Origin: Casimicrobiaceae bacterium
GTDB taxonomy: Bacteria > Pseudomonadota > Gammaproteobacteria > Burkholderiales > Casimicrobiaceae
Direction: 5' to 3'
DNA length: 64,000 bases
Assembly (NCBI GenBank): GCA_026646885.1
Contig: JAPKHK010000001.1
Location: forward strand, 664,501 to 728,500
Numbering within the stretch: position 1 is the first letter of the stretch; the number at the start of each line of letters is the position of its first letter. The position numbers and the translations under genes were made by a program. This document shows, in pieces, positions 4,931 through 61,991 of this stretch. The notes under the pieces are model-generated. The model was not told the origin of the DNA. It did not search any database and was given only the letters and a program-made list of their open reading frames with translations.

Positions 4931-7072
4931 TTAGGTCTGACTTGGCTCACCGAGGTGATCCGCCAGGCGGAAGAGCAAGGGAACCTCGAGCACCCTGGGA
5001 TGATGGAAGCCGTGCTCCCACAGTCCATCTTCACCCCAGCAATCGCCGTGATCGGCACAGACGACGATGGTGCCTTGGGCAAATGCATCCAGCAGCGGGG
5101 CAAGGGCTGCGTCGACATGCTCCAGACACGCGATCTGTCGGCGGCGACATTCCGCCGCATCGTTGGCGGTGCCAAAGGGTATGCAGGGATTCCACGAGGC
5201 ATCCCAAGGGGCGCCCTCGTAATGATACGGTACATGCGTCTCACCGATGTTCAGGAAAGCAAATACGGGCCGCTCCGGCGACAGCTCGTCTTTGAGCCAA
5301 GCCAGTTGCCGGCGCAAACCGGCAGTATCGGCGGCAAAGAAGAAGCGATCGAAATCCCGCGTAAGCTGCCGCCCCGTGAGGCTGCCTGGGTTGAACCAGC
5401 CGACGGCGGCAGCGCCGACGGTGAAATAGCCGGCACGCCGCAACCCATCGATGATGCTGCGCCCTTCCAGGGACTTGAATTCGCCGCCCTTGCCGCCATG
5501 CCCCGCCCCCACCAGCTTGAAGAGCTTGGCAAACTTGGGGTTGAGGTGCGGGACTGCCACCTCGGCAATGCCCGGCGTGAAACCCATGAACATAGCCGCG
5601 TGCGAGCCATAGGTGAAGTACGATGGCGCCATCGCTCGGTGCAGCGGGCCAACGACTTTGAGATGCGGCGCGCGGGCGGCCTCGAACGTGTCGTAGCGAC
5701 ATGAATCCAGGGTAATGAACAAGATCGACCGGCGGTGCTGCTGCTGGAAAACGGCGACCCCGGGCGCAGGCTCGCGCTCCACGACGATGCCAGTATCCAC
5801 CATGCCGATAAACTGGTGCCGCGGTGGGCGCACCACGCTCAACACAAGCGCAGCGACCTGCTTGTCGATCGGCACGAAATTGGCCTCGGCTACCCGATCT
5901 TCGAGCCGAACGGTCAGAAAGTAATTGCCCCTGTTGAAAGGCGCCTCCAACGAAAAGCGCAACTTACGGCGGGTGCCACCCGGATCGCGATCGCTGTGGG
6001 GCAACTCGAAGTAGCGGCCCGAGACTTCGATCATCCGATGGTCGCAGATGATAACGCTGGCCGAAGGCCGCTTCACCGTCGCATCGTACTCGACCTCCAA
6101 CGTGACTTGAATCAAATCGCCCGTAGCGCATGAGGCCTGACGACTACCCGTATCGCTGAAGACGGCATCGATCACCGCACCCTGATCAGTGCCAAACGCC
6201 ACCGCGCCTTCGGAACCCAACGGGGTCTTCGCCCGAATACCCTGACCCAAGGGTGCGCCGCGCCGATCCTCGTCGCGCAGATCCATGATATATTTTTCTG
6301 TTACCTCAGGCGCTGATCCGAAGCCGCGCAATTCGCCCTGCTTCAGATAGGCAACGCTGCGGCAATGGGCCTTGATCGTTCCGAGGTCATGCGAGACCAG
6401 CAGCAGCGTCGCGCCCGAGTCGGTGAGCCGCGCCAAGCGCTCGTAACACTTGGCCTGGAAAGCCATGTCGCCAACCGCCAAGGCCTCGTCGATGATCAAG
6501 ATTTCCGGCTCGACGCTGACCGAAACCGCGAAAGCCAGACGCATCAGCATGCCGCTCGAATACGTGCGCACGGGCTGGTCGAGAAAGTCGCCGATGTCGG
6601 CAAAGGCGGCCACGGCATCGAAGCGCTCGTCGATCTCGCGGCGATCGAGGCCGAGCAGCATGGCGTTCATGTAGACGTTTTCGCGACCGGTGAAGTCCGG
6701 GCGAAATCCGCTGCCCAGTTCCAGCAGCGCGGCGACGCGGCCATTGACCTCGACTTCACCGGAGGAGGGTGCGAGGGTGCCAGCGAGAACCTGCAACAGC
6801 GTGCTTTTCCCCGCCCCGTTACGGCCGATGATCCCGACGGTTTCGCCCCGCTGAACACTGAAGCTGACGTCCCGCAATGCCCAGAACTCGCGGTAGAATT
6901 GGCGTCGCCCGCGCCACAGGGTTTGCTTCAGGCGGTCGATGGGGCGCTCGTAGATTTCGTAGGCCTTGCTGAGGCGGCGAATGGCGATCGCGGGCAGATT
7001 GTCCGCTGCCTCGCTACTGTGCCCGCCTTCTTGGCCCAAATTCGGCTTGCTACCCTTATCCCGCGCACTCAC
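4931..7072 (-). CDS. polysaccharide ABC ATPase fused to an alkaline-phosphatase-superfamily domain
   Basis: A 713-residue, apparently trimodular protein. Residues about 28-270 are a Wzt/KpsT-type ATPase: Walker A GRNGAGKS at 83-90, signature YSSGM at 171-175, Walker B ILIIDEA at 191-197, switch His228. Residues about 295-430 resemble the Wzt C-terminal beta-sandwich that binds the glycan end. Residues about 448-713 resemble the sulfatase/phosphoethanolamine-transferase superfamily, with a LDSCRYD metal-site strand near 455-461 and ADHGD at 673-677. The position of the usual nucleophile appears to be Thr487 (T-Y-G-S-H), not Cys or Ser, which argues against a formylglycine sulfatase. The frame is uninterrupted. 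The gene overlaps cysC by four bases. The catalytic function of the third domain is inference. Confidence 0.85.
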   Translation of the reverse strand: MSARDKGSKPNLGQEGGHSSEAADNLPAIAIRRLSKAYEIYERPIDRLKQTLWRGRRQFYREFWALRDVSFSVQRGETVGIIGRNGAGKSTLLQVLAGTLAPSSGEVEVNGRVAALLELGSGFRPDFTGRENVYMNAMLLGLDRREIDERFDAVAAFADIGDFLDQPVRTYSSGMLMRLAFAVSVSVEPEILIIDEALAVGDMAFQAKCYERLARLTDSGATLLLVSHDLGTIKAHCRSVAYLKQGELRGFGSAPEVTEKYIMDLRDEDRRGAPLGQGIRAKTPLGSEGAVAFGTDQGAVIDAVFSDTGSRQASCATGDLIQVTLEVEYDATVKRPSASVIICDHRMIEVSGRYFELPHSDRDPGGTRRKLRFSLEAPFNRGNYFLTVRLEDRVAEANFVPIDKQVAALVLSVVRPPRHQFIGMVDTGIVVEREPAPGVAVFQQQHRRSILFITLDSCRYDTFEAARAPHLKVVGPLHRAMAPSYFTYGSHAAMFMGFTPGIAEVAVPHLNPKFAKLFKLVGAGHGGKGGEFKSLEGRSIIDGLRRAGYFTVGAAAVGWFNPGSLTGRQLTRDFDRFFFAADTAGLRRQLAWLKDELSPERPVFAFLNIGETHVPYHYEGAPWDASWNPCIPFGTANDAAECRRRQIACLEHVDAALAPLLDAFAQGTIVVCADHGDCWGEDGLWEHGFHHPRVLEVPLLFRLADHLGEPSQT

Positions 7073-7710: not shown

Positions 7711-7782
7711 TTTCAAAGCTCGGTGGGCGGTAGCTGCGAAGGATGCAGAGTAAATGGCATCCGATGCTTGCAAAAGCCGAAC

Positions 7783-7811
7783 ATTATATGCCGCAATCAT
7801 GAAGCGTGAAA
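7783..7811 (-). promoter_or_regulatory. candidate promoter for the cysC operon
   Basis: A perfect TATAAT lies on the minus strand at 7788-7783, about 73 bases before the cysC ATG. The hexamer 17 bases upstream, TTTCAC at 7811-7806, is a poor -35, so an activator may be needed. The site sits in the 289-base divergent region between cysC and the DUF1800 gene. Confidence 0.4.
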
Positions 7812-7999
7812 GGCGGACACGCACTGGACATCGCGCTTCCCCTGCCATCGGCCGCGAAATTCAAATTGTACCCAAATGGCATAAGATGGGTTATGCTGTT
7901 AGCATTGCGGAAGGGGAAAATGGTGCGCTGCTGCACTCGCGCTTCGCACCGGAGGGTGCCCTGCTCGCAACGCAATTCGCCCGACGTCAGGAGAAGGCA

Positions 8000-9847
8000 A
8001 TGTCTACGCTCCCCAAGGCCAAGCGCACTTTACCAGGCCTACTCGTTCTGGTAGCCGTGCTCGCCCTGCCAGCAGGCGTGGGCGCCGCCAACAAGGTGGT
8101 AACGGCCAATGACCCTTTGACCGCGGAGACCAAGGCCTTCATCCCGCTCGACGATCACTTCCTCGTCTTCACCGGCGGACTGCGAAAACGCGCCCAAGCA
8201 GCGGCACGATTTCTCAGGCAGACCACGTTCGGCTACACTCGAGATGATATCGTCGCGCTCATGAACCAGAGCCCCCAGGCCTGGATCGAGGCTCAGTTCG
8301 CGCTTCCCGCGACGTCTCACTTGGCGACCGTGCAGGCCGACCCGGAACGCATCAACCGTCCTTGGGACGTGGTGATGCCCTCGATCTGGAAGCAGTATTT
8401 CGAGGGGCAGGACCAATTTCGCCAGCGCGTCGCCTACGCACTTTCGCAGATTTTCGTCATTTCCTTGGTCAACAACGCCATCAACGATGCCCCCTGCGGC
8501 GCTGCCGCCTATCTCGACATCCTCAACACTCAGGCGTTTGGCAACGTGCGTACTTTGCTGCGTGACGTGACCTTAAACGCCGCCATGGGCGAATACCTGA
8601 GCATGCGCGAAAGCGCCAAAGGTGATCCCGTCTTGCAGACGCAGCCCGACGAGAACTACGCCCGGGAGATCATGCAGCTGTTCTCCATCGGATTGTGGAT
8701 GCTGAATCTCGATGGCACGCGAAAGCTCGACGGCAACGGCAATCCGATTCCGACCTATGCCGAGGAAACGGTCAGAGAATTCGCGCGCGTGCTTTCAGGC
8801 TGGACTTTTAGCAATCAGGACCAACAGAACCCCAACCGCTGGTTGAACCCTGATCTATGGGATTCCGATCCGACCATCCGGGCGGCCAAATCCTGCGCGG
8901 CTTGGGGGGCCCCAATGGCGCCTTGGATCGAAGTCTACAAGTCGGTGGACAACACTCGCTACATTTCGGGCCCAGCGCATGATACGGGTCCCAAGACCCT
9001 GCTCACCTACCCCAATGCGCCGCACACCCAGATCCCGGCCCATGTCTGGGGCCAGTCCCTCGACGAATATGTACGCGGCAGTCTGGAGAAGGCGATCGAC
9101 AACATCTTCTATCATCCCAATGTGGGGCCGTTCCTTTCTCGCCAGCTGATTCAGCGCCTGGTCACTTCCAACCCATCCCCCGAGTACATCGCACGTGTGA
9201 GCCAGAAGTTCAACGACAACGGACAGGGCGTGCGCGGGGACATGCGGGCAATACTGCGGGCGATTCTGCTCGACCAAGAAGCGCGCAACAGCAGCATTGC
9301 GCAGCGTCGGGGCTACGGCAAACTCACCGAGCCAGTGATTCGCTTCGTGCAGATGCACAGGGCCTTTCGGGCGATTCGCCCCAATGGATATCGCGGCCTG
9401 TACGATTTCAGCTCGCCGACCAATTTGAATCAGAATCCCTTGCGATCGCCTTCGGTATTCAACTTCTACCACCCGGATTTCGTGCCTACGGGGCCTCTGT
9501 CCCAGAACGGTCTTTTCGGCCCGGAATTCGAGATCACCGATGCTTCGTCGATCGCCGGCTACGCCAACTTCAGCAAGTACGCCATGATCGACGGCTTCGA
9601 TCACAGCAGCAGCACACCCGGCAATCGCATGATTCCTGACTACAGCTTCTATCTTGGCTTGACCAACGACCCGGCACTGCTGATAGAGGAACTGGACTTG
9701 TTGCTCTGCGCCGGCGGCATGACCCGGGAGTACAAATCCCAGCTCGCCGAGTCGATCGGCAAGATTCCCCCGACCAGCGGCTCGGATCGTCTGCATGTGG
9801 CACTGTGGATGATCATCAACTCTCCCGACTATCTGGTTCAAAAGTAA
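8000..9847 (+). CDS. DUF1800 family secreted protein
   Basis: Member of the DUF1800 family, 615 residues, exported by a Sec signal peptide (basic start, hydrophobic core about residues 11-27, cleavage near GVGAA-NK). The family has no established enzymatic activity; members are typically encoded directly before a DUF1501 protein, as here. Family features include the FLRQTTFGYTRDDI stretch near the N-terminus, the ENYAREIMQLFSIG core and the LSGWTF motif. I chose ATG 8000 because an AGGAGAAGG ribosome site lies at 7989-7997; the frame is open 246 bases further upstream, but those codons lack family similarity. Nine bases separate it from the DUF1501 gene. Confidence 0.85.
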   Translation: MSTLPKAKRTLPGLLVLVAVLALPAGVGAANKVVTANDPLTAETKAFIPLDDHFLVFTGGLRKRAQAAARFLRQTTFGYTRDDIVALMNQSPQAWIEAQFALPATSHLATVQADPERINRPWDVVMPSIWKQYFEGQDQFRQRVAYALSQIFVISLVNNAINDAPCGAAAYLDILNTQAFGNVRTLLRDVTLNAAMGEYLSMRESAKGDPVLQTQPDENYAREIMQLFSIGLWMLNLDGTRKLDGNGNPIPTYAEETVREFARVLSGWTFSNQDQQNPNRWLNPDLWDSDPTIRAAKSCAAWGAPMAPWIEVYKSVDNTRYISGPAHDTGPKTLLTYPNAPHTQIPAHVWGQSLDEYVRGSLEKAIDNIFYHPNVGPFLSRQLIQRLVTSNPSPEYIARVSQKFNDNGQGVRGDMRAILRAILLDQEARNSSIAQRRGYGKLTEPVIRFVQMHRAFRAIRPNGYRGLYDFSSPTNLNQNPLRSPSVFNFYHPDFVPTGPLSQNGLFGPEFEITDASSIAGYANFSKYAMIDGFDHSSSTPGNRMIPDYSFYLGLTNDPALLIEELDLLLCAGGMTREYKSQLAESIGKIPPTSGSDRLHVALWMIINSPDYLVQK

Positions 9848-9856
9848 GAGGTCCGC

Positions 9857-11326
9857 ATGGCACCCGTAGATCAAAAGAAGCTTTCGCGCCGCGAGTTTCT
9901 GCGCTTGACTACCGCCCTTGCGGCTACACCGATGGTCGGTTCCTTCACGGAAATGGCGCTCGCCGCCGGACCGTTTAACGATTACCGCGCCCTGGTTTGT
10001 GTCTTTCTCCTGGGCGGCAACGATTCCCACAACATGATCGTGCCGCTGGACGGTCGGTACGCAAGCTATGCCTCCAACCGCGGGCCGCTGGCGCTCCCCC
10101 AAGCGAGCCTCCAGGCCAATGCCATAACCGATGCGGTGCAAGGCAGCTTTGGACTGCACCCCCGGCTCCTCAAGACAGCGGCGCTGTACACCGGCGGACG
10201 GCTGGCAATCGTCAACAATGTTGGCATCCTCCTGCGCCCCACATCGAAGTCGGATTACCAAAACAAGTTCCAATTGCCGCCGCAGCTGTTCTCGCACTCC
10301 GACATGCAAATGCACTGGCATACCATGCATCCCCAGGCACCGGCATTATCGGGGTGGGGCGGCCGCCTCGGCGACCTTTTGCAATCATCGAACAACGAAC
10401 AACTGCTGGTCTCGGTGGCGACCGCGAGTTCCAGCTTATTCCTGAAGGGGGGTCAGTCGGTAGTGCACCAAATTGGCACATGGCGACCCAATTCAGCCTC
10501 CTCGACCATCGTGCAGCGCATACGCGCCTGGCGCGACTGGGATGTCACGCGTTCAAACCCTCAAGCCTTGTACGAGAGTTCCCTCGTCATGCCCCGGCGC
10601 AACCTCCTGGAAGCTCAGTTCGGTCAAATCGCCAACCGGTCGGTGAGCACCAATGATTTGCTGCTCGAGACCCTTTATAGCGGCCCAGTCAACGGCAATT
10701 ACACTGAGCAATTCCCGATCACCACGCCCTACCCCGCAAGCAACAATCTGGCGGCGCAACTGCGTTCGGTAGCGATGATGATCGCCGCGCGGTCGGCTCT
10801 GGGGGTGAAGCGCCAAATCTTTTTCGTCGCCATGAGCGGCTTCGACAATCATTCTGATCAATACGACACCAGTTCCAGCGCACGTCGCCCAGCAGCCGGC
10901 GAGCCTGCGATTCTCTACGGCAAGCATGCTGACCTCTTGGAGCAACTCGACGACGCCCTCAAAGCCTTTTATGACACGACGGTCGAATTGGGCGTGCAGA
11001 ACAACGTCACGACCTTCACCGCCTCCGACTTCGGGCGCACCTTGACTTCAAACGGCAAGGGCTCGGACCACGGTTGGGGGGGCCATCATTTCGTCCTGGG
11101 CGGCGCCGTTCGAGGCGGACAGCTTTACGGCAGCTTCCACAACCTGCAAGTGGGCAGCGGCAACCCGTCCGACGCCGGTCAAGGCCGCTTGATCCCAGCC
11201 TATTCTTGCGATCAGTACGCCGCAACACTGGGTAAGTGGCTCGGCGCATCGCCTTCGGAACTGGGGAATGTTCTGCCCAATCTTGGCAACTTCTCCGGGC
11301 AAACTGACTTGGGCTTCATGCTGTAA
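9857..11326 (+). CDS. DUF1501 family Tat-exported protein
   Basis: DUF1501 protein of 489 residues, a family distantly related to the alkaline phosphatase/sulfatase fold with no firmly assigned reaction. A twin-arginine signal is visible (SRREFLRLTTALAAT), with cleavage likely after ALAAG near residue 37, so it is folded before export. Typical features are the LLGGNDSHNMIVPL block near 50-65, SGFDNHSDQ in the middle and a C-terminal DFGRT...GSDHGWGGHH metal-ligand-like block. It forms an operon with the DUF1800 gene. A perfect hairpin follows four bases after the stop. Confidence 0.87.
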   Translation: MAPVDQKKLSRREFLRLTTALAATPMVGSFTEMALAAGPFNDYRALVCVFLLGGNDSHNMIVPLDGRYASYASNRGPLALPQASLQANAITDAVQGSFGLHPRLLKTAALYTGGRLAIVNNVGILLRPTSKSDYQNKFQLPPQLFSHSDMQMHWHTMHPQAPALSGWGGRLGDLLQSSNNEQLLVSVATASSSLFLKGGQSVVHQIGTWRPNSASSTIVQRIRAWRDWDVTRSNPQALYESSLVMPRRNLLEAQFGQIANRSVSTNDLLLETLYSGPVNGNYTEQFPITTPYPASNNLAAQLRSVAMMIAARSALGVKRQIFFVAMSGFDNHSDQYDTSSSARRPAAGEPAILYGKHADLLEQLDDALKAFYDTTVELGVQNNVTTFTASDFGRTLTSNGKGSDHGWGGHHFVLGGAVRGGQLYGSFHNLQVGSGNPSDAGQGRLIPAYSCDQYAATLGKWLGASPSELGNVLPNLGNFSGQTDLGFML

Positions 11327-11329
11327 AAG

Positions 11330-11355
11330 GATCATCGGCAACGGCGACGATGATC
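11330..11355 (+). repeat. hairpin between the DUF1501 gene and the small secreted gene
   Basis: Arms GATCATCG (11330-11337) and CGATGATC (11348-11355) can form a perfect eight-pair stem with a ten-base loop. There is no following T-run, so it is more likely an mRNA 3'-end stabiliser or attenuator than a full terminator. It lies four bases after the DUF1501 stop and 35 bases before the next start codon. Confidence 0.5.
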
Positions 11356-11390
11356 ATCTTGGCAAAAACGTGTTTACGTGAAAGGAGCGG

Positions 11391-11771
11391 ATGATGAGTG
11401 TGAAGCGATATTCCCCGGCGGCGGCCAGGTTCCTTGCCAGCGTGGTTCTAGCGGGCGCGATGCTGAGTGGGCCGAGCTCGGCAGCGATTGTCAATCAACC
11501 GATCGGCGAGATCCTGCAGATCGTGACTCGCGACACCGGACAGACGTCAGTATTTTTGGTCAATAGCGGATTCAATTCCGCTGACGGCTGTAGCTACGAC
11601 CGTGGCGTGATTCTCGACACCGACCTGGGGGCGAAGTCCCTGCTCGCGGCGACGATGATGGCGTTCTCGCTCGAAAAGACCGTCGAAATAGCCGTGGACG
11701 GCTGCGTGCTGCTCAGCGGCAGCAATAGCCTCTATGTCCCGCGGATTGTTAAGGTCAGAGTCCTGCGCTGA
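11391..11771 (+). CDS. small secreted protein with a cysteine pair
   Basis: Protein of 126 residues with no function I can assign. The start has an AAAGGAG ribosome site at 11381-11387; ATG 11391 or 11394 are both possible. A Sec signal peptide (hydrophobic core about residues 13-25, cleavage near PSSAA) leaves a mature domain of roughly 95 residues with two cysteines, in DGCSYDRG and VDGCVLL, placed to form one disulfide. Alternating hydrophobic strands suggest a small beta-rich fold. It follows the DUF1800/DUF1501 pair on the same strand and may be part of that unit. Confidence 0.7.
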   Translation: MMSVKRYSPAAARFLASVVLAGAMLSGPSSAAIVNQPIGEILQIVTRDTGQTSVFLVNSGFNSADGCSYDRGVILDTDLGAKSLLAATMMAFSLEKTVEIAVDGCVLLSGSNSLYVPRIVKVRVLR

Positions 11772-11977
11772 GTCACATCGAAACCCGCCCGGCACACCGG
11801 ACGCCCAGTGCGACGTGGCACGGGTCCATGAGCCCTCGCTGAGCCGTCTCGCCTGGACCAGGGGAACGACGAAAGGGCCGCCCGATCGCTCCTGCTATTC
11901 TGGGCCCGGGCATCACGCGAAACGCCGCCGATTGCCCTGAAGCGCCGCCAAACCCGGCCTGCACCCTCGCCCCTTCC

Positions 11978-52406: not shown

Positions 52407-53372
52407 ATGACTCTGCGCTCCTTCGCCGAAGCGGTGCTGCGTGTGCTCGATTATGTCTTGTTGCTGCCGCTCCTGCCCGCGGCACTGCTGCTCAAGTTCG
52501 TGCGCCGCGCCGGCGTGCATCGACTGCCGCGAAGCCGCGAACTGTTGCGCCGCCTTGGCGTGTTTGCACTGCGCGCGCACTACTATGAACCGCAGTTCGA
52601 CTTCCGCGGCCTGGCGCGCCCGCTCGCCGACGTTCGGCCCTTGCCCGGCATCGACCTCGATCTGCCCGGCCAGCTCGCACTCCTCGACCGAATGCGCTTC
52701 GCCGAGGAACTGCGCGATCTGCCGCGCGAGCGGCGCGGCGAGCTCGAATACCACCTCGACAACCGCTTCTTTGAGGCTGGGGACGCGGAATTCCTCTACC
52801 AGATCATTCGCCTCAAGCAGCCACGTCAGATCATCGAAATCGGCAGCGGCAACTCGACTGTTATGGCCATGAAGGCGCTAGCGCGCAACCGGCAAGACAA
52901 CGCGGATTACCGGTGTGAGCACATCTGCATCGAGCCCTACGAAATGCCTTGGCTGGAAAAGACAGGAGCGCGAATCATCCGGCGCCGGGTGGAGGACGTC
53001 GGAAAGGAGATCTTCGCCACACTCGGTCCGAACGATCTGCTGTTCATCGATTCGTCTCACGTGATCCGCCCGCAAGGCGACGTTTTGTTCGAAGTCCTGG
53101 AATTGCTACCCACGTTGCCGCCGGGCGTGATCGTGCATGTGCACGATATTTTCACACCGCGGGACTATCCGACCCAGTGGGTGATCAACGAGGTCAGGTT
53201 CTGGAACGAGCAGTATCTTCTGGAGGCATTCTTGAGTGGCAACGGCCGATGGCGTGTTCTGGCCGCACTCAACCACCTCTACCATGAAGAATTCGCCGCG
53301 CTCAAAGCCGTCTGCCCCCATTTGCAGCCGGACAGTGCGCCGTCCTCGTTCTACTTGCAGCGGCTCAATTGA
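52407..53372 (+). CDS. class I SAM-dependent methyltransferase, membrane anchored
   Basis: 321 residues. An N-terminal hydrophobic stretch at about 13-31 is followed by a Rossmann methyltransferase fold: EIGSGNSTVMA at 144-154, the acidic end of strand 2 near CIEPYE, and DLLFIDSSHVIRPQGDVLFEV, as in Methyltransf_24 proteins. The target is probably a sugar of the lipid-linked glycan, by context. The gene starts 18 bases after the initiating transferase and its last eight bases overlap the convergent glycosyltransferase. Confidence 0.82.
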   Translation: MTLRSFAEAVLRVLDYVLLLPLLPAALLLKFVRRAGVHRLPRSRELLRRLGVFALRAHYYEPQFDFRGLARPLADVRPLPGIDLDLPGQLALLDRMRFAEELRDLPRERRGELEYHLDNRFFEAGDAEFLYQIIRLKQPRQIIEIGSGNSTVMAMKALARNRQDNADYRCEHICIEPYEMPWLEKTGARIIRRRVEDVGKEIFATLGPNDLLFIDSSHVIRPQGDVLFEVLELLPTLPPGVIVHVHDIFTPRDYPTQWVINEVRFWNEQYLLEAFLSGNGRWRVLAALNHLYHEEFAALKAVCPHLQPDSAPSSFYLQRLN

Positions 53373-54594
53373 GTGCTTCCGCGACACCGGAGGCGCTCTT
53401 GCGCTGGATTTGGGCCATTTCGCGCAGCAATTCGGCAAAGCGCAAGTGATTTGGCACCAGCGCGTAGTCCTTGGCGATGAGTGCCTGGCCACGAGCGATC
53501 AATGGCGCGACCTCGATCTGGCCGCTGATGAAGCGATCGACGGCTGCGGCCAGCGCCGCAGCGTCCCCCGGCGGCACCAGCACGCCGGCATCGCGCACCA
53601 GCTCTGGAATGGCGGTGATGGCGCTGGCGATCACCGGCACACCAGCGCGCATTGCTTCCATGAGCACGATTGGCATGCCCTCGGTAACGCTGCACAGCAC
53701 GAAGAGATCTGCATCCCCGTAAAGGGCGAGCACCTGGTCATGGAAGCGCGACCCAAGCAGCCGCACCCTCTCCTGCAAACCCCTGGCCGCAATCTGGGCC
53801 TCCAACTGCGGTCGCGCCGGCCCTTCGCCGACGATGTCGCAGCGAAAGTCGGCGCCACGCGCGGCAAGAAGCGCGCAGGCCTCGATCAGCACATGCTGCG
53901 CCTTGTGCTCCGAGAGCCGCCCGACGTTGAGGATGCGCCACGGACCGGTGCCGCGCGGTATCCGCGTCGGCGGTGGCAGGGCCGGCACCCCCATGCCGAT
54001 CACCTCCAGCCGCCGGGGTTGAACGGCCGGGAAATGTTCGCGCAGGTAAGCCACGTTGAACTGGGAGATCGACACCAGAAGGTCGGCTCCCGCGAGTTTC
54101 TCCTGGAGATCCGGGGGAAAGTCGAAACTCAGATCGGAGCCGTGGAGGGTGAGCCCGTAGGGCAACCCCGACAACGCGCTGGCCCACCGCGCCACAGCGG
54201 CCGCACCGTAAGTGAAATGTGCATGCAGCCGCACCCCCGGCAAACGCCCAAACCGCTTGAGCACCACCGCGGCGCCAGCCAGATGCGCCAGCGTGGTCCT
54301 CAGTGCCTCCTCGCCCGCCAAGGCGGCACGCATGGCCCGCAAGCAGCGCAAGGGATGGCGGAACACGGCCGCCAACAACGCCAAGAGAATTTCTCCGGCA
54401 CGAATTTCATTGAGATAGAGTACATCACTCAGAATCGCCCGCATGCGCGGGTGGATTTCCTTCTCCGCGGGCCGATGGTTTGCGACCAGCCGCAACTCGA
54501 TACCGGCCTCGCGCAGGACTTCGAACTGATCGAAGACAAAGGTCTCGCTCAGACAAGGGAAAGTGGAGTTGAGAAAGACCACGCTGGGTTTCAC
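53365..54594 (-). CDS. glycosyltransferase family 4 (WcaL-like)
   Basis: 409-residue GT-B glycosyltransferase, similar in pattern to colanic-acid WcaL. Features are FLNSTFPCLSETFVFDQF at the N-terminus, GLTLHGSDLSF in the middle, ILNVGRLSEHKAQHVLIEA, and the E-x7-E motif SVTEGMPIVLMEAMRAG near the C-terminus. It is the only gene of this region transcribed on the minus strand between the methyltransferase and the GT2 gene. Confidence 0.88.
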   Translation of the reverse strand: MKPSVVFLNSTFPCLSETFVFDQFEVLREAGIELRLVANHRPAEKEIHPRMRAILSDVLYLNEIRAGEILLALLAAVFRHPLRCLRAMRAALAGEEALRTTLAHLAGAAVVLKRFGRLPGVRLHAHFTYGAAAVARWASALSGLPYGLTLHGSDLSFDFPPDLQEKLAGADLLVSISQFNVAYLREHFPAVQPRRLEVIGMGVPALPPPTRIPRGTGPWRILNVGRLSEHKAQHVLIEACALLAARGADFRCDIVGEGPARPQLEAQIAARGLQERVRLLGSRFHDQVLALYGDADLFVLCSVTEGMPIVLMEAMRAGVPVIASAITAIPELVRDAGVLVPPGDAAALAAAVDRFISGQIEVAPLIARGQALIAKDYALVPNHLRFAELLREMAQIQRKSASGVAEALN

Positions 54595-57651: not shown

Positions 57652-58755
57652 TTGGCCGCGACCGCTCGCGCTCGCCCTGTGACCCGCGCGGAGGCCGCGG
57701 TACGAGCCGCGGAATGGAATGCTCTGGCCGCCGCACTACCGTTTGCCTCGGTCTTCACGACCTGGGAGTGGGTGGATACATGGTGGAACCACTTCGGTGA
57801 AACCTACGAGCCCTGCACCCTTTTTGTCGAGCGCGGTGAAGAACTGCTGGGCGTCTTGCCCCTCGCGTTCAAAAAGCTCGGGTGGCATCGCGATGGTTTG
57901 GGAGGCCGGGTGCTGCTATACGCCAGCAGCTTGGAGCTATCCCCCGATCACCTCGATCTGATCGCCAAACCAGAGGAAGCCTCGGTCTGTCTCAAGGCCC
58001 TTGTCGACTACCTGCATCGCACTCCTGCCGCCTGGGACGTTCTCGATCTCTCCGGCCTTGCCGCTGGCGGAAACCTAGATCGACTATTCGCCAGCGGGTC
58101 GCTCTCCGGCAACCGGACGACACTCTCGCGAGCGCCCTATCTTGCGCTGGCGGGAACGTTTGACGACTATTTGCAGGCCTTCTCCGCCAAGGCCCGCTAT
58201 AACTTTGGACGTGCACTTCGCCAACTCGAGGCCCAAGGATTCACATTCGTCGAAGTGCAACCCGCGGAGGCAGACGCCTTCTTCCTGGACCTCTATGCAC
58301 TGCACGCTCGGCGATCCAGTGCGAAGGGCGTCGCCAGCACGTTTCAGGGAGAGTCCATCGCTCGCTTCCATCGCGAGCTGCTCCAGCGTACCGCGGGCCT
58401 TGGCTGGCATTGGAATCGCGCGCTGCGCGGCCCAAATGGCATGGTGGCCGGGATCTATGCCTACTTGGTCGCCGGCCGGATTGCCTATTATCAGATCGCC
58501 ATCGACCCGGTCTGGGAACGTTATAGCCCCGGGACGGCCCTGATCTTCGGGGCTTTGCGCGACGCCTATGCGAGCCGCGCCGCCGAATTCGACTTTCTCC
58601 GCGGCGAGGAAGAATACAAGCGGCGCTGGACCCGGGACGCCCGCGAGGTGGTTCGCTGGCGGCTCTTTGCCGCTACCCCGCGCGGCCTGCTCGCCAGATT
58701 CTGGAGCAGCGCATACGGGTGGGCCCGTCGCGCCAAACATCGCTGGCACGGTTGA
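57652..58755 (+). CDS. FemAB/CelD-type GNAT acyltransferase
   Basis: 367 residues of the BioF2-like GNAT family (CelD/FemAB-related) seen in exopolysaccharide loci. Family features: an N-terminal WNALAAALPFASVFTTWEWVDTWW block, a central YARRSSAKGVASTFQ-like stretch, and a C-terminal SPGTALIFGALRDAYASRAAEFDFLRGEEEYKRRW block. It starts at TTG 57652, three bases after the deacetylase stop. A role in acylating or aminoacylating the glycan is inferred from context only. Confidence 0.82.
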   Translation: MAATARARPVTRAEAAVRAAEWNALAAALPFASVFTTWEWVDTWWNHFGETYEPCTLFVERGEELLGVLPLAFKKLGWHRDGLGGRVLLYASSLELSPDHLDLIAKPEEASVCLKALVDYLHRTPAAWDVLDLSGLAAGGNLDRLFASGSLSGNRTTLSRAPYLALAGTFDDYLQAFSAKARYNFGRALRQLEAQGFTFVEVQPAEADAFFLDLYALHARRSSAKGVASTFQGESIARFHRELLQRTAGLGWHWNRALRGPNGMVAGIYAYLVAGRIAYYQIAIDPVWERYSPGTALIFGALRDAYASRAAEFDFLRGEEEYKRRWTRDAREVVRWRLFAATPRGLLARFWSSAYGWARRAKHRWHG

Positions 58756-58852: not shown

Positions 58853-60502
58853 CTATTGAACCGCTGGAACGGCGCTCAGTGTGGGCAGAAACTTGAACCA
58901 AAGGGCGCTCACCACGCTTTCCACTTCCGGCTCCGCCTCAAAGGGCCCCAAGTAGACTCGATAGACCCTGCCGCCCGTGCGCTCGGCCGCCACCAGTTTT
59001 ACCTTGGTCCACACTCGGCCCAAGGACTCCATCTCGGCCGACGCTGCCTCTTCAGAATCGAAGCTTGCATAATAGACGAAGCGGCGACCGGCAGCGTCTT
59101 GCACAACCATCATTTTCCGATTCAGGACCGGCAGCGACACTCTGCTCCCTGGCGCCAAGGCGTCGAGATTTTGGAGTTGCGGGTTTGCTGCGGTGAGGAT
59201 ATCGCGCACGGTAGCATTCCATGCGCCAAAGTGCTGTGAGGCCAGCAAGGCGAGACTGAGATCCGTTGTCGTCATGACCGTTCGCGCTTCGCTACCGCTC
59301 TTGCCTGGTACGTCCACCCCCAATCGTTGAGCCGATTCCAGAGTGGACACCGCAGTATCCATGCGCCGCGGCGCGTCGCCAAAGGAACTCGCCGATCGCC
59401 CGGAGGGTGGCGGCGTCGATTCGTGCTTTTGCAAACTGAACCATAGCGCGATGCCCCCCGTGAGCAACGCCAGCAGCCCCAGCAAGCCCACGATCAGAAG
59501 TAGGCCCCGCCCTGGCACAGAGCCCAGCGGCTCACCTTCCTGAAGCAGCCTGCCCGCGCCGGGAATGACGATCGGCAACGGCGCCGATTGGTTCGTGGCC
59601 GGCGCTTGGCTTGGACTTGTGCTTGCGCTGCGGATCACCGGCTCAGACGCGGCGGGAGCGGTCGAATTCGGAGAGTTTTCAGGCAGGTGCGAAATACCGC
59701 GTGTCGCTTTCATATTCGCCAAAGCTTCACGGGCCAGATGCTCGTCTATGGCGGGTGCGAACTTTCCATAAGCGTAGAGGAGACAATAGTCGCACGCTTG
59801 GTTGATAAGCCGAGGGCAACCACCGGAATAGTTGAACACTTGATCTGCGGCGGCCGGCGAAAAAAGCTCGGGATTGCCGTTGGCGATATGCAGGCGGTGG
59901 CGAATATAGTCAGCCGTCTCCACTCGATTGAGAGGACGCAAGTGGCAGGAGAGCGCAATACGCTGCTGCACTTGACGGAGCGAATATTGCGACAGGAGCG
60001 CGCCTAATTCATCCTGCCCGAGCAGGATGATCTGCAAGAGTTTGCGCGTGCTCGATTCGATATTCGAAATCAGCCGGATACCCTCGAGCGTCTTCACTGG
60101 CAATTGGTGCGCCTCGTCGATTACCAGCACCACATCGCGTTTCTCGGCCGCGAGTTCTGTCAGGCGTTGGCGCAAGGCGTCGATGGCCTCGGGGCCCTCG
60201 GATGTCACCGCCGGCAGGCCCACACGCGCGCGCACAGCGGCGATGATCTCCTCGGCAGAAACCCAGGGATATGCCACTTCGACGACCAGTGCGCCATCAC
60301 CCAACTCGGCCTTGAGCGCCTGTACCAGCATGGTCTTCCCAGTACCCACGTCGCCGGTGACAAGCAGAAACCCCTTGCCTTCGCGTATACCGTAAGTGAG
60401 CATCGCCAACGCGTCTCTGTGATTCGCGCTGCGATAGAAGAAACTGGGGTCGGGAGAATTCCGGAAGGGATGGGTCGCGAAACGAAAGAACTCCTCGTAC
60501 AT
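58853..60502 (-). CDS. ExeA-like AAA ATPase with periplasmic SPOR domain
   Basis: 549 residues. The cytoplasmic AAA domain at about 1-270 starts MYEEFFRF.THPF, with Walker A GDVGTGKT at 50-57, Walker B VVLVIDEAHQL at 124-134 and a sensor R-x-L region. A linker leads to one transmembrane helix at about 333-356. The periplasmic part has a short LysM-like segment (about 428-457, DILTAANPQLQNLDALAPGS) and a SPOR-like domain at about 466-545, with GGRVYRVYLGPFE near 510-522. It resembles the secretion ATPase of exosortase/PEP-CTERM loci and ExeA. SPOR domains bind denuded peptidoglycan. It lies two bases after the 174-residue gene, in the UXS operon. Confidence 0.85.
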   Translation of the reverse strand: MYEEFFRFATHPFRNSPDPSFFYRSANHRDALAMLTYGIREGKGFLLVTGDVGTGKTMLVQALKAELGDGALVVEVAYPWVSAEEIIAAVRARVGLPAVTSEGPEAIDALRQRLTELAAEKRDVVLVIDEAHQLPVKTLEGIRLISNIESSTRKLLQIILLGQDELGALLSQYSLRQVQQRIALSCHLRPLNRVETADYIRHRLHIANGNPELFSPAAADQVFNYSGGCPRLINQACDYCLLYAYGKFAPAIDEHLAREALANMKATRGISHLPENSPNSTAPAASEPVIRSASTSPSQAPATNQSAPLPIVIPGAGRLLQEGEPLGSVPGRGLLLIVGLLGLLALLTGGIALWFSLQKHESTPPPSGRSASSFGDAPRRMDTAVSTLESAQRLGVDVPGKSGSEARTVMTTTDLSLALLASQHFGAWNATVRDILTAANPQLQNLDALAPGSRVSLPVLNRKMMVVQDAAGRRFVYYASFDSEEAASAEMESLGRVWTKVKLVAAERTGGRVYRVYLGPFEAEPEVESVVSALWFKFLPTLSAVPAVQ

Positions 60503-60504
60503 CG

Positions 60505-61029
60505 CTATTCGTCCTCGACGACCTCGACGCCCTTGATCGGCAGCCTCTGCCTCACGCCGATCAAATGCACCCAGACGATGTCGCCTTTGTAGTTGTTGAT
60601 ATTGATGGGAACGCGATTGATGCCCTTCTCCAGCGGTATCCCACGCACGATCACCTGATTGGCGGGGACCATGTTGTTGGCGCGATCGTAATGGCCGATC
60701 GTGACGCGAAGGTCGATCTCGGCCTTGCTATAGTAAAAAGTGCTGTCGTCCTGCATGAAGACCGTGATGAAGCTGGGCGGGTCCTGCTCCCAGTGGGAAA
60801 CGTAAATCTTCCAGGCCCGCGTGTCGCGCGTGTCATTGTATGAGGTCGGGTAGTTCGGAACGTGAGTGACTTCATCGCCTTGAATGTAGAGCTTGCGGCG
60901 ATAGAGGAGGCCAGTGCGTGAGTGCTCGAAGACTTTGCCCTCCTCCACAACCTCGAAATCCTCTTCGTCCTCGGCCACCGCTGCCAGCGGCAGCGCAAAC
61001 ACGAATACGAACAGAAGGCGCCTGAACAT
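60505..61029 (-). CDS. secreted hypothetical protein of the UXS operon
   Basis: 174 residues with a Sec signal peptide (hydrophobic core at about 5-16, cleavage near AAVAEDE). The mature part is rich in aromatic beta-strand segments (LLYRRKLYIQG, WKIYVSHWEQDPPSF, FYYSKAEIDLRVTIG) and has no cysteines or metal motif. No family known to me. It sits between the ATPase and UXS genes with gaps of two and eight bases, so a periplasmic role in the glycan pathway is likely but not demonstrated. The open frame upstream to 61146 adds no family sequence. Confidence 0.7.
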   Translation of the reverse strand: MFRRLLFVFVFALPLAAVAEDEEDFEVVEEGKVFEHSRTGLLYRRKLYIQGDEVTHVPNYPTSYNDTRDTRAWKIYVSHWEQDPPSFITVFMQDDSTFYYSKAEIDLRVTIGHYDRANNMVPANQVIVRGIPLEKGINRVPININNYKGDIVWVHLIGVRQRLPIKGVEVVEDE

Positions 61030-61037
61030 GTTCGCCG

Positions 61038-61991
61038 CTACTTGAGGAGCCTGTCGAAATAGGCGATGGTCTGCACCAAGCCCTCCCGCAGAGGCACTTT
61101 CGGTTCCCAGCCCAGCTTGGTCTGCGCCAAGGAGATGTCCGGGCAACGACGTACCGGATCATCAGTCGGCAGCGGATGATAAACGATCTGCGAACGCGAT
61201 CCGGTAAGTTCCACTACCGTCTCGGCCAAACTGCGGATGGTAAATTCTCCCGGATTGCCAAGATTCACCGGCCCGCAGAAATCGTCAGGTGTATCCATCA
61301 GCCTTTGGAAACCATCGATCAAGTCGTCGACGTAGCAGAAAGACCGAGTCTGGGAACCGTCGCCGTAAATCGTTATTGGCTCGTTCTTCAAGGCCTGGAC
61401 GATGAAATTCGACACCACACGGCCGTCGTTGGGGTGCATGTTGGGTCCATAGGTGTTGAAAATACGGGCCACCTTGATGCGCACGTGATGCTGCTGAAAG
61501 TAATCGAAAAAGAGCGTTTCCGCGCAGCGCTTGCCCTCGTCATAACAGGAGCGACGCCCGATGGGGTTGACATGCCCCCAGTAATCCTCGCGCTGTGGAT
61601 GGACCTTGGGGTCGCCGTACACCTCGCTGGTCGAGGCCTGAAAGATCTTCGCCTTCACGCGCTTAGCCAGCCCCAGCATGTTGATCGCGCCGTGGACGCT
61701 CGTTTTGGTGGTCTGAACGGGGTCGAACTGGTAATGAACCGGAGAGGCCGGGCACGCCAAGTTATAGATCTCGTCGACCTCTACATAGAGCGGAAAAGTG
61801 ACGTCATGGCGCATGAATTCGAAGCGCTTGTAATCGAAGAGCGAGAGAATGTTTTCCTTGCTTCCGGTGAACAGATTGTCGGCGCAAACGATGTCATGGC
61901 CCTGTTCGAGTAGAGTTCGACAAAGATGCGAGCCGAGAAAGCCCGCGCCCCCGGTCACTAAAACCCGCTTGCCATAGAGTTGTTTCATCAT
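61038..61991 (-). CDS. UDP-glucuronate decarboxylase (UDP-xylose synthase)
   Basis: Converts UDP-glucuronate to UDP-xylose with internal NAD recycling. 317 residues, the usual size of the UXS group. [11 protein letters not shown] is at 13-23, the active-site loop is [10 protein letters not shown], the catalytic Tyr-x3-Lys is in SCYDEGKR, and [21 protein letters not shown] is characteristic. No UDP-glucose dehydrogenase is present in the window, so UDP-glucuronate is made elsewhere. It heads the three-gene operon UXS, hypothetical, ATPase. Confidence 0.93.

What the first reader, a model, noticed from the sequence alone, without database searches (positions are those of the whole stretch)
58853..60502. 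ATPase with LysM-like and SPOR-like periplasmic domains in a glycan locus
An ExeA-like AAA ATPase spans the membrane and ends in a SPOR-like domain, which binds denuded peptidoglycan, preceded by a possible LysM-like segment. This would tie a cytoplasmic motor to cell-wall sites, perhaps to place a polysaccharide exporter at septa, in a way similar to DamX architecture. Exosortase-type loci have a related ATPase, but the SPOR ending is notable.
Basis: partly seen in the sequence, partly recalled or inferred. Interest (0 to 1): 0.5.

Follow-up and report, generated by a model that had tools for sequence, protein, structure and literature searches.

The report
Wall-anchored ATPase in a sugar-export locus
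A bacterial membrane ATPase encoded among slime-polymer export genes ends outside the inner membrane in two small cell-wall-binding folds, so it probably helps build or hold the sugar exporter across the wall; the parts are known, the combination is unusual.

Summary
The minus-strand gene 58853-60502 encodes a 549-residue protein with an ExeA-type AAA domain, one transmembrane helix and a C-terminal SPOR domain (PF05036 24.0 bits, 27.2 for the C-terminal piece; cut-off 21). The LysM-like part has no Pfam hit, but the predicted structure shows a LysM fold before a SPOR fold. Two Sterolibacterium MAGs carry the same architecture, one beside the same exopolysaccharide (EPS) genes. No other sampled genome of the family has it.

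AAA+SPOR proteins exist (gltB-adjacent DamX-type; an MSHA-pilus type), but the AAA domain forms its own clade within the ExeA/XrtA-ATPase radiation, not with DamX. The signature SPOR glutamine that contacts denuded glycan is tyrosine in all three orthologues, so targeting to septal denuded glycan is doubtful. The genome's only exosortase found is XrtH, on another contig; no XrtA.

Best explanation: an ExeA-like assembly or gating factor for a Wzx/Wzy-type EPS exporter, anchored in peptidoglycan by LysM-SPOR instead of PG_binding_1. Related ATPases sit beside OPX/chain-length genes elsewhere, and an AAA+ ATPase of a similar Sphingomonas locus is needed for EPS. Function here is inferred. New variant of a known kind.

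The parts
58853..60502 (-). ExeA/XrtA-type AAA ATPase with one TM helix and LysM-SPOR periplasmic tail, 549 aa
59708..60502 (-). cytoplasmic AAA domain, residues 1-265
   Evidence: PF13401 83.1 bits; TIGR03015 239.6 bits, below its 324.5 cut-off
60332..60355 (-). Walker A GDVGTGKT, residues 50-57
   Evidence: 7 of 8 positions incl. G50-T57 are invariant in the 3 orthologues
60107..60133 (-). Walker B VVLVIDEAH, residues 124-132
59444..59509 (-). transmembrane helix, about residues 332-353
   Evidence: Kyte-Doolittle peak 2.56
59129..59287 (-). LysM-like fold, about residues 406-458
   Evidence: AF2 model and VIA-align; no Pfam LysM hit
58889..59086 (-). SPOR domain, residues about 473-538; Tyr477 at the signature Gln position
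   Evidence: PF05036 24.0/27.2 bits; RlpA SPOR Z 8.2; invariant columns
60505..61032 (-). 175-aa protein with an apparent signal peptide, directly upstream of the ATPase; probably same transcript, not a dedicated partner
   Evidence: no Pfam or NCBIfam family; orthologues in two Sterolibacterium genomes lie outside the EPS locus
61038..61991 (-). SDR-family nucleotide-sugar enzyme
   Evidence: all matches below cut-off
57652..58755 (+). GNAT/FemAB-like acyltransferase
   Evidence: PF13480 78.2 bits
56704..57648 (+). polysaccharide deacetylase
   Evidence: PF01522 75.4 bits
55799..56707 (+). GH16 glycosyl hydrolase
   Evidence: PF00722 46.3 bits
54675..55850 (+). GT2 glycosyltransferase
   Evidence: PF13641; NF041865 EpsU 247 bits, below cut-off
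53365..54594 (-). GT4 glycosyltransferase
   Evidence: PF00534 132 bits
50928..52388 (+). initiating EPS sugar-phosphate transferase
   Evidence: TIGR03025 353 bits, over its cut-off

Best explanation
The protein is a bitopic ATPase of the ExeA/XrtA-ATPase radiation dedicated to the exopolysaccharide (EPS) locus around it. Its cytoplasmic AAA domain would oligomerise and hydrolyse ATP. Its periplasmic LysM-SPOR tail would hold the complex in the peptidoglycan, doing the job that PG_binding_1 does in ExeA/GspA. There it would assemble, position or gate the trans-envelope polysaccharide exporter (OPX/Wza-type protein plus Wzc-type co-polymerase, encoded about 5-7 kb beyond the window's end). Shown: the domains, the locus, co-conservation and the AAA relationships. 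Inferred: ATPase activity, peptidoglycan binding and exporter assembly.
For: Domains and fold. The locus encodes a nearly complete EPS pathway: TIGR03025 initiating transferase, GTs, GH16 and deacetylase in the window; WecG-type GT, OPX (TIGR03027 116.6 bits, below 180), PCP (TIGR03007 69.6, below 278.85), CpsD-like kinase and O-antigen-ligase-like protein just downstream. The same ATPase lies near GH16, GT2, GT4, sugar transferase and WecG genes in Sterolibacterium L032. Full-length ATPase and locus GH16 are both found only in G000 among 64 family genomes. Related AAA ATPases sit beside OPX, chain-length or CpsD genes in a Rhodovulum locus with no exosortase annotated in the stretch shown and in XrtA-type loci of Nitratidesulfovibrio and Sphingomonas. 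A Sphingomonas LM7 EPS locus of similar content needs its AAA+ ATPase PrmE for EPS production (PMC11340318, passages read). ExeA binds peptidoglycan and, with ExeB, is needed for secretin assembly (PMC4098917, passages read).
Against: No direct evidence of binding or activity. OPX proteins are not secretins. No conserved ExeB-like partner was found; the adjacent 175-aa protein is elsewhere in the two relatives. PrmE was not compared with this protein by sequence. In the relatives only L032 shows the wider locus; L031 is a 4.7-kb contig with one possible glycan gene.
Confidence: 0.5

Rival explanations
1. Septal placement: the SPOR domain reads denuded glycan at the division site and brings the exporter there, like DamX.
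For: SPOR domain over cut-off; AAA+SPOR architecture exists in gltB-adjacent DamX-type proteins; arginines 508 and 515 and Phe481, at or near positions that contact glycan in RlpA, are invariant in the three orthologues.
Against: The signature glutamine is Tyr477 and Tyr in both orthologues, whereas 30 of 34 rows with a letter there have Gln (seed domains were picked with Gln-containing anchors, so this is biased). The AAA domain is not of the DamX-type clade.
Confidence: 0.13
2. A second polymerisation ATPase: the AAA domain acts on the Wzc-type co-polymerase and chain-length control, and the LysM-SPOR tail only anchors it.
For: Related ATPase genes lie next to or near chain-length and CpsD genes; the kinase-like protein of this locus is only a weak family match (TIGR01007 35.2 bits); PMC11340318 discusses PrmE as a second ATPase beside the BYK kinase.
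Against: In this genome the ATPase is over 9 kb from the co-polymerase gene and on the other strand. The nearest functional precedent, ExeA, acts on the outer-membrane pore.
Confidence: 0.22
3. The tail binds the exported polysaccharide itself rather than peptidoglycan, so the ATPase senses or ratchets the polymer.
For: LysM and SPOR are both glycan-binding folds (established knowledge); the denuded-glycan glutamine is lost while the fold is kept; the ATPase travels with this locus's GH16.
Against: No sugar specificity can be read from sequence; related ATPases carry plain peptidoglycan-binding modules.
Confidence: 0.08

Closest known systems
ExeA/GspA (type II secretion assembly ATPase)
   Same: N-terminal AAA_22 domain, one TM helix, peptidoglycan-binding module at the C-terminus, about 550 aa
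   Different: LysM-SPOR instead of GspA_C39-like plus PG_binding_1; no GspB or secretin beside it; EPS locus; separate AAA clade
XrtA/PEP-CTERM system-associated ATPase (TIGR03015)
   Same: Closest named family for the AAA domain (239.6 bits over nearly the full model); same kind of locus and same deacetylase/FemAB-type neighbours
   Different: Below the family cut-off of 324.5; outside the clade of short ATPases; no XrtA found; adds LysM-SPOR
DamX-type AAA-SPOR protein (gltB neighbour; name recalled)
   Same: AAA_22, then C-terminal SPOR
   Different: AAA domain only distantly alike (best 27% identity), separate clade, other neighbourhood, no LysM-like fold tested there
SPOR-bearing ATPase of an MSHA-type pilus operon (L020/L082; MSHA name is my reading)
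   Same: ExeA-type AAA plus SPOR (21.8 bits) beside an envelope-export gene set
   Different: Beside secretin-like and GspE/GspF-like genes; separate AAA clade; keeps the SPOR Gln
PrmE of Sphingomonas sp. LM7 (PMC11340318)
   Same: AAA+ ATPase in a Wzy-type EPS locus with Wza, Wzz, BYK, WecG and GH16
   Different: Sequence and C-terminal domains not examined here

Membership tests
SPOR domain (PF05036) | Profile score over the gathering cut-off | tested here: met
   24.0 bits whole, 27.2 C-terminal piece, cut-off 21; orthologues 27.1 and 19.3
SPOR domain (PF05036) | RNP-like beta-alpha-beta-beta-alpha fold | tested here: met
   AF2 model; RlpA SPOR Z 8.2, 2.2 A over 66 residues
SPOR domain (PF05036) | Glutamine at the denuded-glycan contact (RlpA Q270) | tested here: not met
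   Tyr477, and Tyr in both orthologues; a conserved feature of the domain, not an absolute requirement for it
LysM domain (PF01476) | Profile score over cut-off | tested here: not met
   No PF01476 among the 25 of 28 matches shown for the whole protein, nor among the 2 for the C-terminal piece, up to E 10
LysM domain (PF01476) | beta-alpha-alpha-beta fold | tested here: met
   Kbp region Z 8.2 and 6.8; CBM50 7r1l Z 6.2, 1.6 A over 45 residues; predicted model only
XrtA/PEP-CTERM ATPase (TIGR03015) | Score over the curated cut-off | tested here: not met
   239.6 of 324.5 bits
XrtA/PEP-CTERM ATPase (TIGR03015) | XrtA in the genome | tested here: not met
   One exosortase found by PF09721; it is XrtH by TIGR04177 206.7 bits; draft genome, 98.93% complete
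XrtA/PEP-CTERM ATPase (TIGR03015) | PEP-CTERM substrates in the genome | tested here: inconclusive
   No PF07589 match, but controls were silent too
ExeA/GspA | PG_binding_1 (PF01471) C-terminal domain | tested here: not met
   Absent; present in L037 and L012
ExeA/GspA | Peptidoglycan binding and pore assembly | not testable with these tools
   Needs biochemistry
DamX-type AAA-SPOR | AAA_22 plus C-terminal SPOR | tested here: met
DamX-type AAA-SPOR | AAA domain of the DamX-type clade | tested here: not met
   Tree of 33 rows; five DamX-type rows, on long branches, lie apart at 99/99

The most novel reading that the evidence does not exclude
A separate lineage of ExeA-type ATPases has taken up a LysM-SPOR tandem and become a dedicated wall anchor for an EPS exporter, and the SPOR domain has traded the denuded-glycan glutamine for tyrosine, so that it reads non-septal peptidoglycan or the polymer itself. 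Together with the MSHA-type and DamX-type cases this would mean that wall-binding modules are swapped repeatedly on one family of envelope motors according to the machine served.
Probability: 0.25. Interest if true: 0.55.

Novelty: new variant of a known kind. Interest (0 to 1): 0.36.

Why it matters
How Wzx/Wzy-type exporters are built through the peptidoglycan is open, and ATPases of this family appear beside many EPS systems without a known job. A version with two recognisable wall-binding folds suggests a concrete, testable role: ExeA-like insertion or anchoring of the polysaccharide pore.

Tried and rejected
Profile-profile comparison of the LysM-SPOR alignment with the Desulfofervidaceae homologue L033 gave nothing useful (hhalign probability 1.5). 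Its own predicted model is poor (pLDDT 55.5) and only hints at LysM (Kbp Z 5.1) and SPOR (RlpA Z 4.7), so I make no claim that this architecture reaches beyond Sterolibacterium relatives. A PDB sequence search with the tail profile found no significant match (best E 0.16). The idea that the neighbouring 175-aa protein is an ExeB-like partner was dropped: its relatives in both Sterolibacterium genomes lie outside the EPS locus, among dehydratase-like, aldehyde-dehydrogenase-like and transport-like genes by my reading. The C-terminal profile hits in 14 other genomes of a 398-genome phylum sample are SPOR proteins in which the query's AAA domain finds no match. No plasmid record covers 80% of the protein (87 records match, all on part). 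The PEP-CTERM search cannot count as absence because its controls were silent. PMC1569441 (find only) holds none of the ATPase terms tried. Paper searches: SPOR domain+AAA+ExeA+ATPase (1 paper), DamX/SPOR domain/AAA ATPase, two of three (83 papers, 20 listed), ExeA+peptidoglycan+secretin+exopolysaccharide (none), ExeA+ExeB+peptidoglycan, exosortase/exopolysaccharide/ATPase/prsK, three of four (10 listed), SPOR domain+exopolysaccharide, LysM+SPOR domain+AAA, GspA+SPOR+ATPase+polysaccharide export (none): of these I saw search listings, and passages of PMC9712689, PMC4098917, PMC11340318 and PMC6895207 only; I saw no paper describing this protein. Most subscription journals are not in that library.

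Limits of counts. Tree: rows L050, L051, L052, L054 and L055 were dropped before building; C-terminal classes came from length and a crude motif, so 'short' is not a proven XrtA class. Tree: a chosen subset of 28 homologues plus five DamX-type rows with very long branches. For DamX-type proteins I fetched 13 regions chosen by long open frame from the listed matches of 75 genomes (the list was cut); 5 of 13 carry AAA_22 and SPOR over cut-off and 3 of these adjoin gltB-like genes. In one search L032 and L033 gave no row. The RlpA residue equivalences are gapless counting from Phe481 and Arg515 by me.

Full report
What is there. The finding lies on the minus strand at 58853-60502, one ORF of 549 aa. 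It has an AAA_22 domain (83.1 bits, residues 40-168), intact Walker A and B motifs, one hydrophobic helix at about 333-353, and a SPOR domain at 472-533 that passes Pfam's cut-off (24.0 bits; 27.2 for the C-terminal piece alone; cut-off 21). LysM is not detected by Pfam; NCBIfam shows only a weak tail match to a SafA-type model. The predicted structure of residues 402-549 settles this as far as a prediction can: mean pLDDT 78.3, a beta-alpha-alpha-beta unit and then a beta-alpha-beta-beta-alpha unit. VIA-align puts RlpA SPOR at Z 8.2 (2.2 A, 66 residues) on the second and Kbp (Z 8.2, 1.9 A, 57 residues) and the CBM50 LysM 7r1l (Z 6.2, 1.6 A, 45 residues) on the first. Foldseek's own E-values for the same model are not significant (best 0.12), so the fold call rests on VIA-align and topology, plus Pfam for SPOR.

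Orthologues. Among six relatives pulled from genome contigs, two Sterolibacterium MAGs, L031 and L032, carry the full architecture (588 and 582 aa; 48% and 45% identity over the alignment). Their SPOR scores are 27.1 and 19.3 bits against a cut-off of 21. In 64 genomes of the window's family, 16 have some match to the protein, but apart from the window's own genome none extends over the LysM-SPOR tail; the closest are ATPases with PG_binding_1 (L037, checked by Pfam) or short ones. A profile of the tail finds 15 of 398 phylum genomes, and only in the window's genome does the AAA domain match as well. The genome has a single match to the whole protein.

The locus. Around the gene lie an initiating EPS sugar transferase (TIGR03025 353 bits, over cut-off), a methyltransferase, GT4 and GT2 glycosyltransferases, a GH16 hydrolase, a polysaccharide deacetylase, a GNAT/FemAB-like protein and an SDR enzyme. 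Beyond the window follow an SxtJ-like protein, an OmpA-type lipoprotein, an amidotransferase-like protein, a WecG/TagA glycosyltransferase, an OPX protein, a PCP, a CpsD-like kinase, an O-antigen-ligase-like protein, a likely flippase and another GT4, then galU, ligA, a ZipA-like gene and an smc-like gene (the flippase, this GT4 and the last four genes are my reading of the translations). L032 has the ATPase near GH16, GT2, GT4, sugar transferase and WecG genes (my reading of the translations). The locus GH16 occurs in 1 of 64 family genomes, the same one that has the ATPase. So the ATPase travels with this EPS locus, though the number of independent cases is small.

Exosortase. One PF09721 match exists in the genome, on contig C23; it is XrtH (TIGR04177 206.7 bits, cut-off 86), next to a beta-helix-like protein and not in an EPS locus. 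No XrtA was found. The ATPase scores 239.6 bits on the XrtA-associated ATPase model, below its 324.5 cut-off. The gene order resembles XrtA-type loci, where the ATPase is followed directly, or after an outer-membrane protein gene, by a deacetylase and a FemAB protein.

Relationships. In a tree of 51 AAA domains the three LysM-SPOR proteins form one clade (100/100), apart from the clade of short ATPases, from the ExeA/GspA-type proteins with PG_binding_1 and from SPOR-bearing ATPases of an MSHA-type pilus operon (pilus operon). With five gltB-adjacent or similar AAA-SPOR proteins added, the DamX-type rows lie apart at 99/99, on very long branches. SPOR therefore sits on ExeA-superfamily ATPases in at least three separate AAA lineages; whether by independent gain or loss is not resolved.

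Mechanism. ExeA binds peptidoglycan, multimerises on it with ExeB and is needed for assembly of the secretin (PMC4098917, passages read). A related ATPase in a Rhodovulum plasmid locus, annotated without an exosortase in the stretch shown, sits directly before the chain-length and CpsD genes, with an OPX gene nearby. In Sphingomonas LM7 an AAA+ ATPase, PrmE, lying between Wza and Wzz genes, is required for EPS, and the authors call it an ATPase not previously associated with polysaccharide assembly (PMC11340318, passages read); I could not compare its sequence. By analogy, the window's protein most likely helps assemble, position or gate the EPS exporter, with LysM-SPOR as its wall anchor. This is inference; confidence 0.5.

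The septum question. In RlpA the denuded glycan is bound by Q270, R302 and R309 side chains, F274 and many main-chain contacts, and the glutamine is the most conserved feature (PMC6895207, passages read). Counting from the conserved Phe and Arg, the window's protein keeps Phe481, Arg508 and Arg515 but has Tyr477 at the glutamine; both orthologues have Tyr too. In a set of SPOR domains gathered here 30 of 34 rows with a letter at that column have Gln; the seed was picked with Gln-containing anchors and the window's own row began downstream of the column, so this is a guide only. SPOR binding to denuded glycan, and hence septal placement, is thus neither shown nor excluded, and less likely than for an ordinary SPOR domain.

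Verdict. The domain observation is right, including the uncertain LysM part. The reading as a DamX-like septal placer is one of several and not the best. The protein is a new variant of a known kind, an ExeA/XrtA-type ATPase with an exchanged wall-binding module in an EPS locus, and worth a modest interest score.

Noticed in passing
window 4931-7072, minus strand: A polysaccharide-type ABC ATPase appears fused to a C-terminal sulfatase/phosphatase-like domain (my reading of the translation), inside a second glycan locus at the left end of the window.
   Followed up: no
L079 (G000:C23:55501-75400), 9284-10009 minus and 9856-11964 minus: XrtH exosortase beside a beta-helix-like protein, far from the EPS locus.
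   Followed up: partly
L085 (G000:C83:160001-179900), 9024-9833 minus: A second GH16 gene, 51% identical to the locus GH16, without evident EPS genes around it.
   Followed up: partly
L078, 14051-20000: The EPS locus adjoins, by my reading, galU, ligA, zipA-like and smc-like genes.
   Followed up: no
L033 10001-11503: Desulfofervidaceae ExeA-type ATPase whose tail also looks LysM-SPOR-like, with weak structural support.
   Followed up: partly
L034 4032-6206: Acidobacterial ExeA-type AAA domain fused to a TonB C-terminal domain (PF03544 63.9 bits).
   Followed up: no
window 7754-9847 and 9857-11326, plus strand: Adjacent pair of large proteins that look like a DUF1800/DUF1501 pair (recalled names, not searched).
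   Followed up: no
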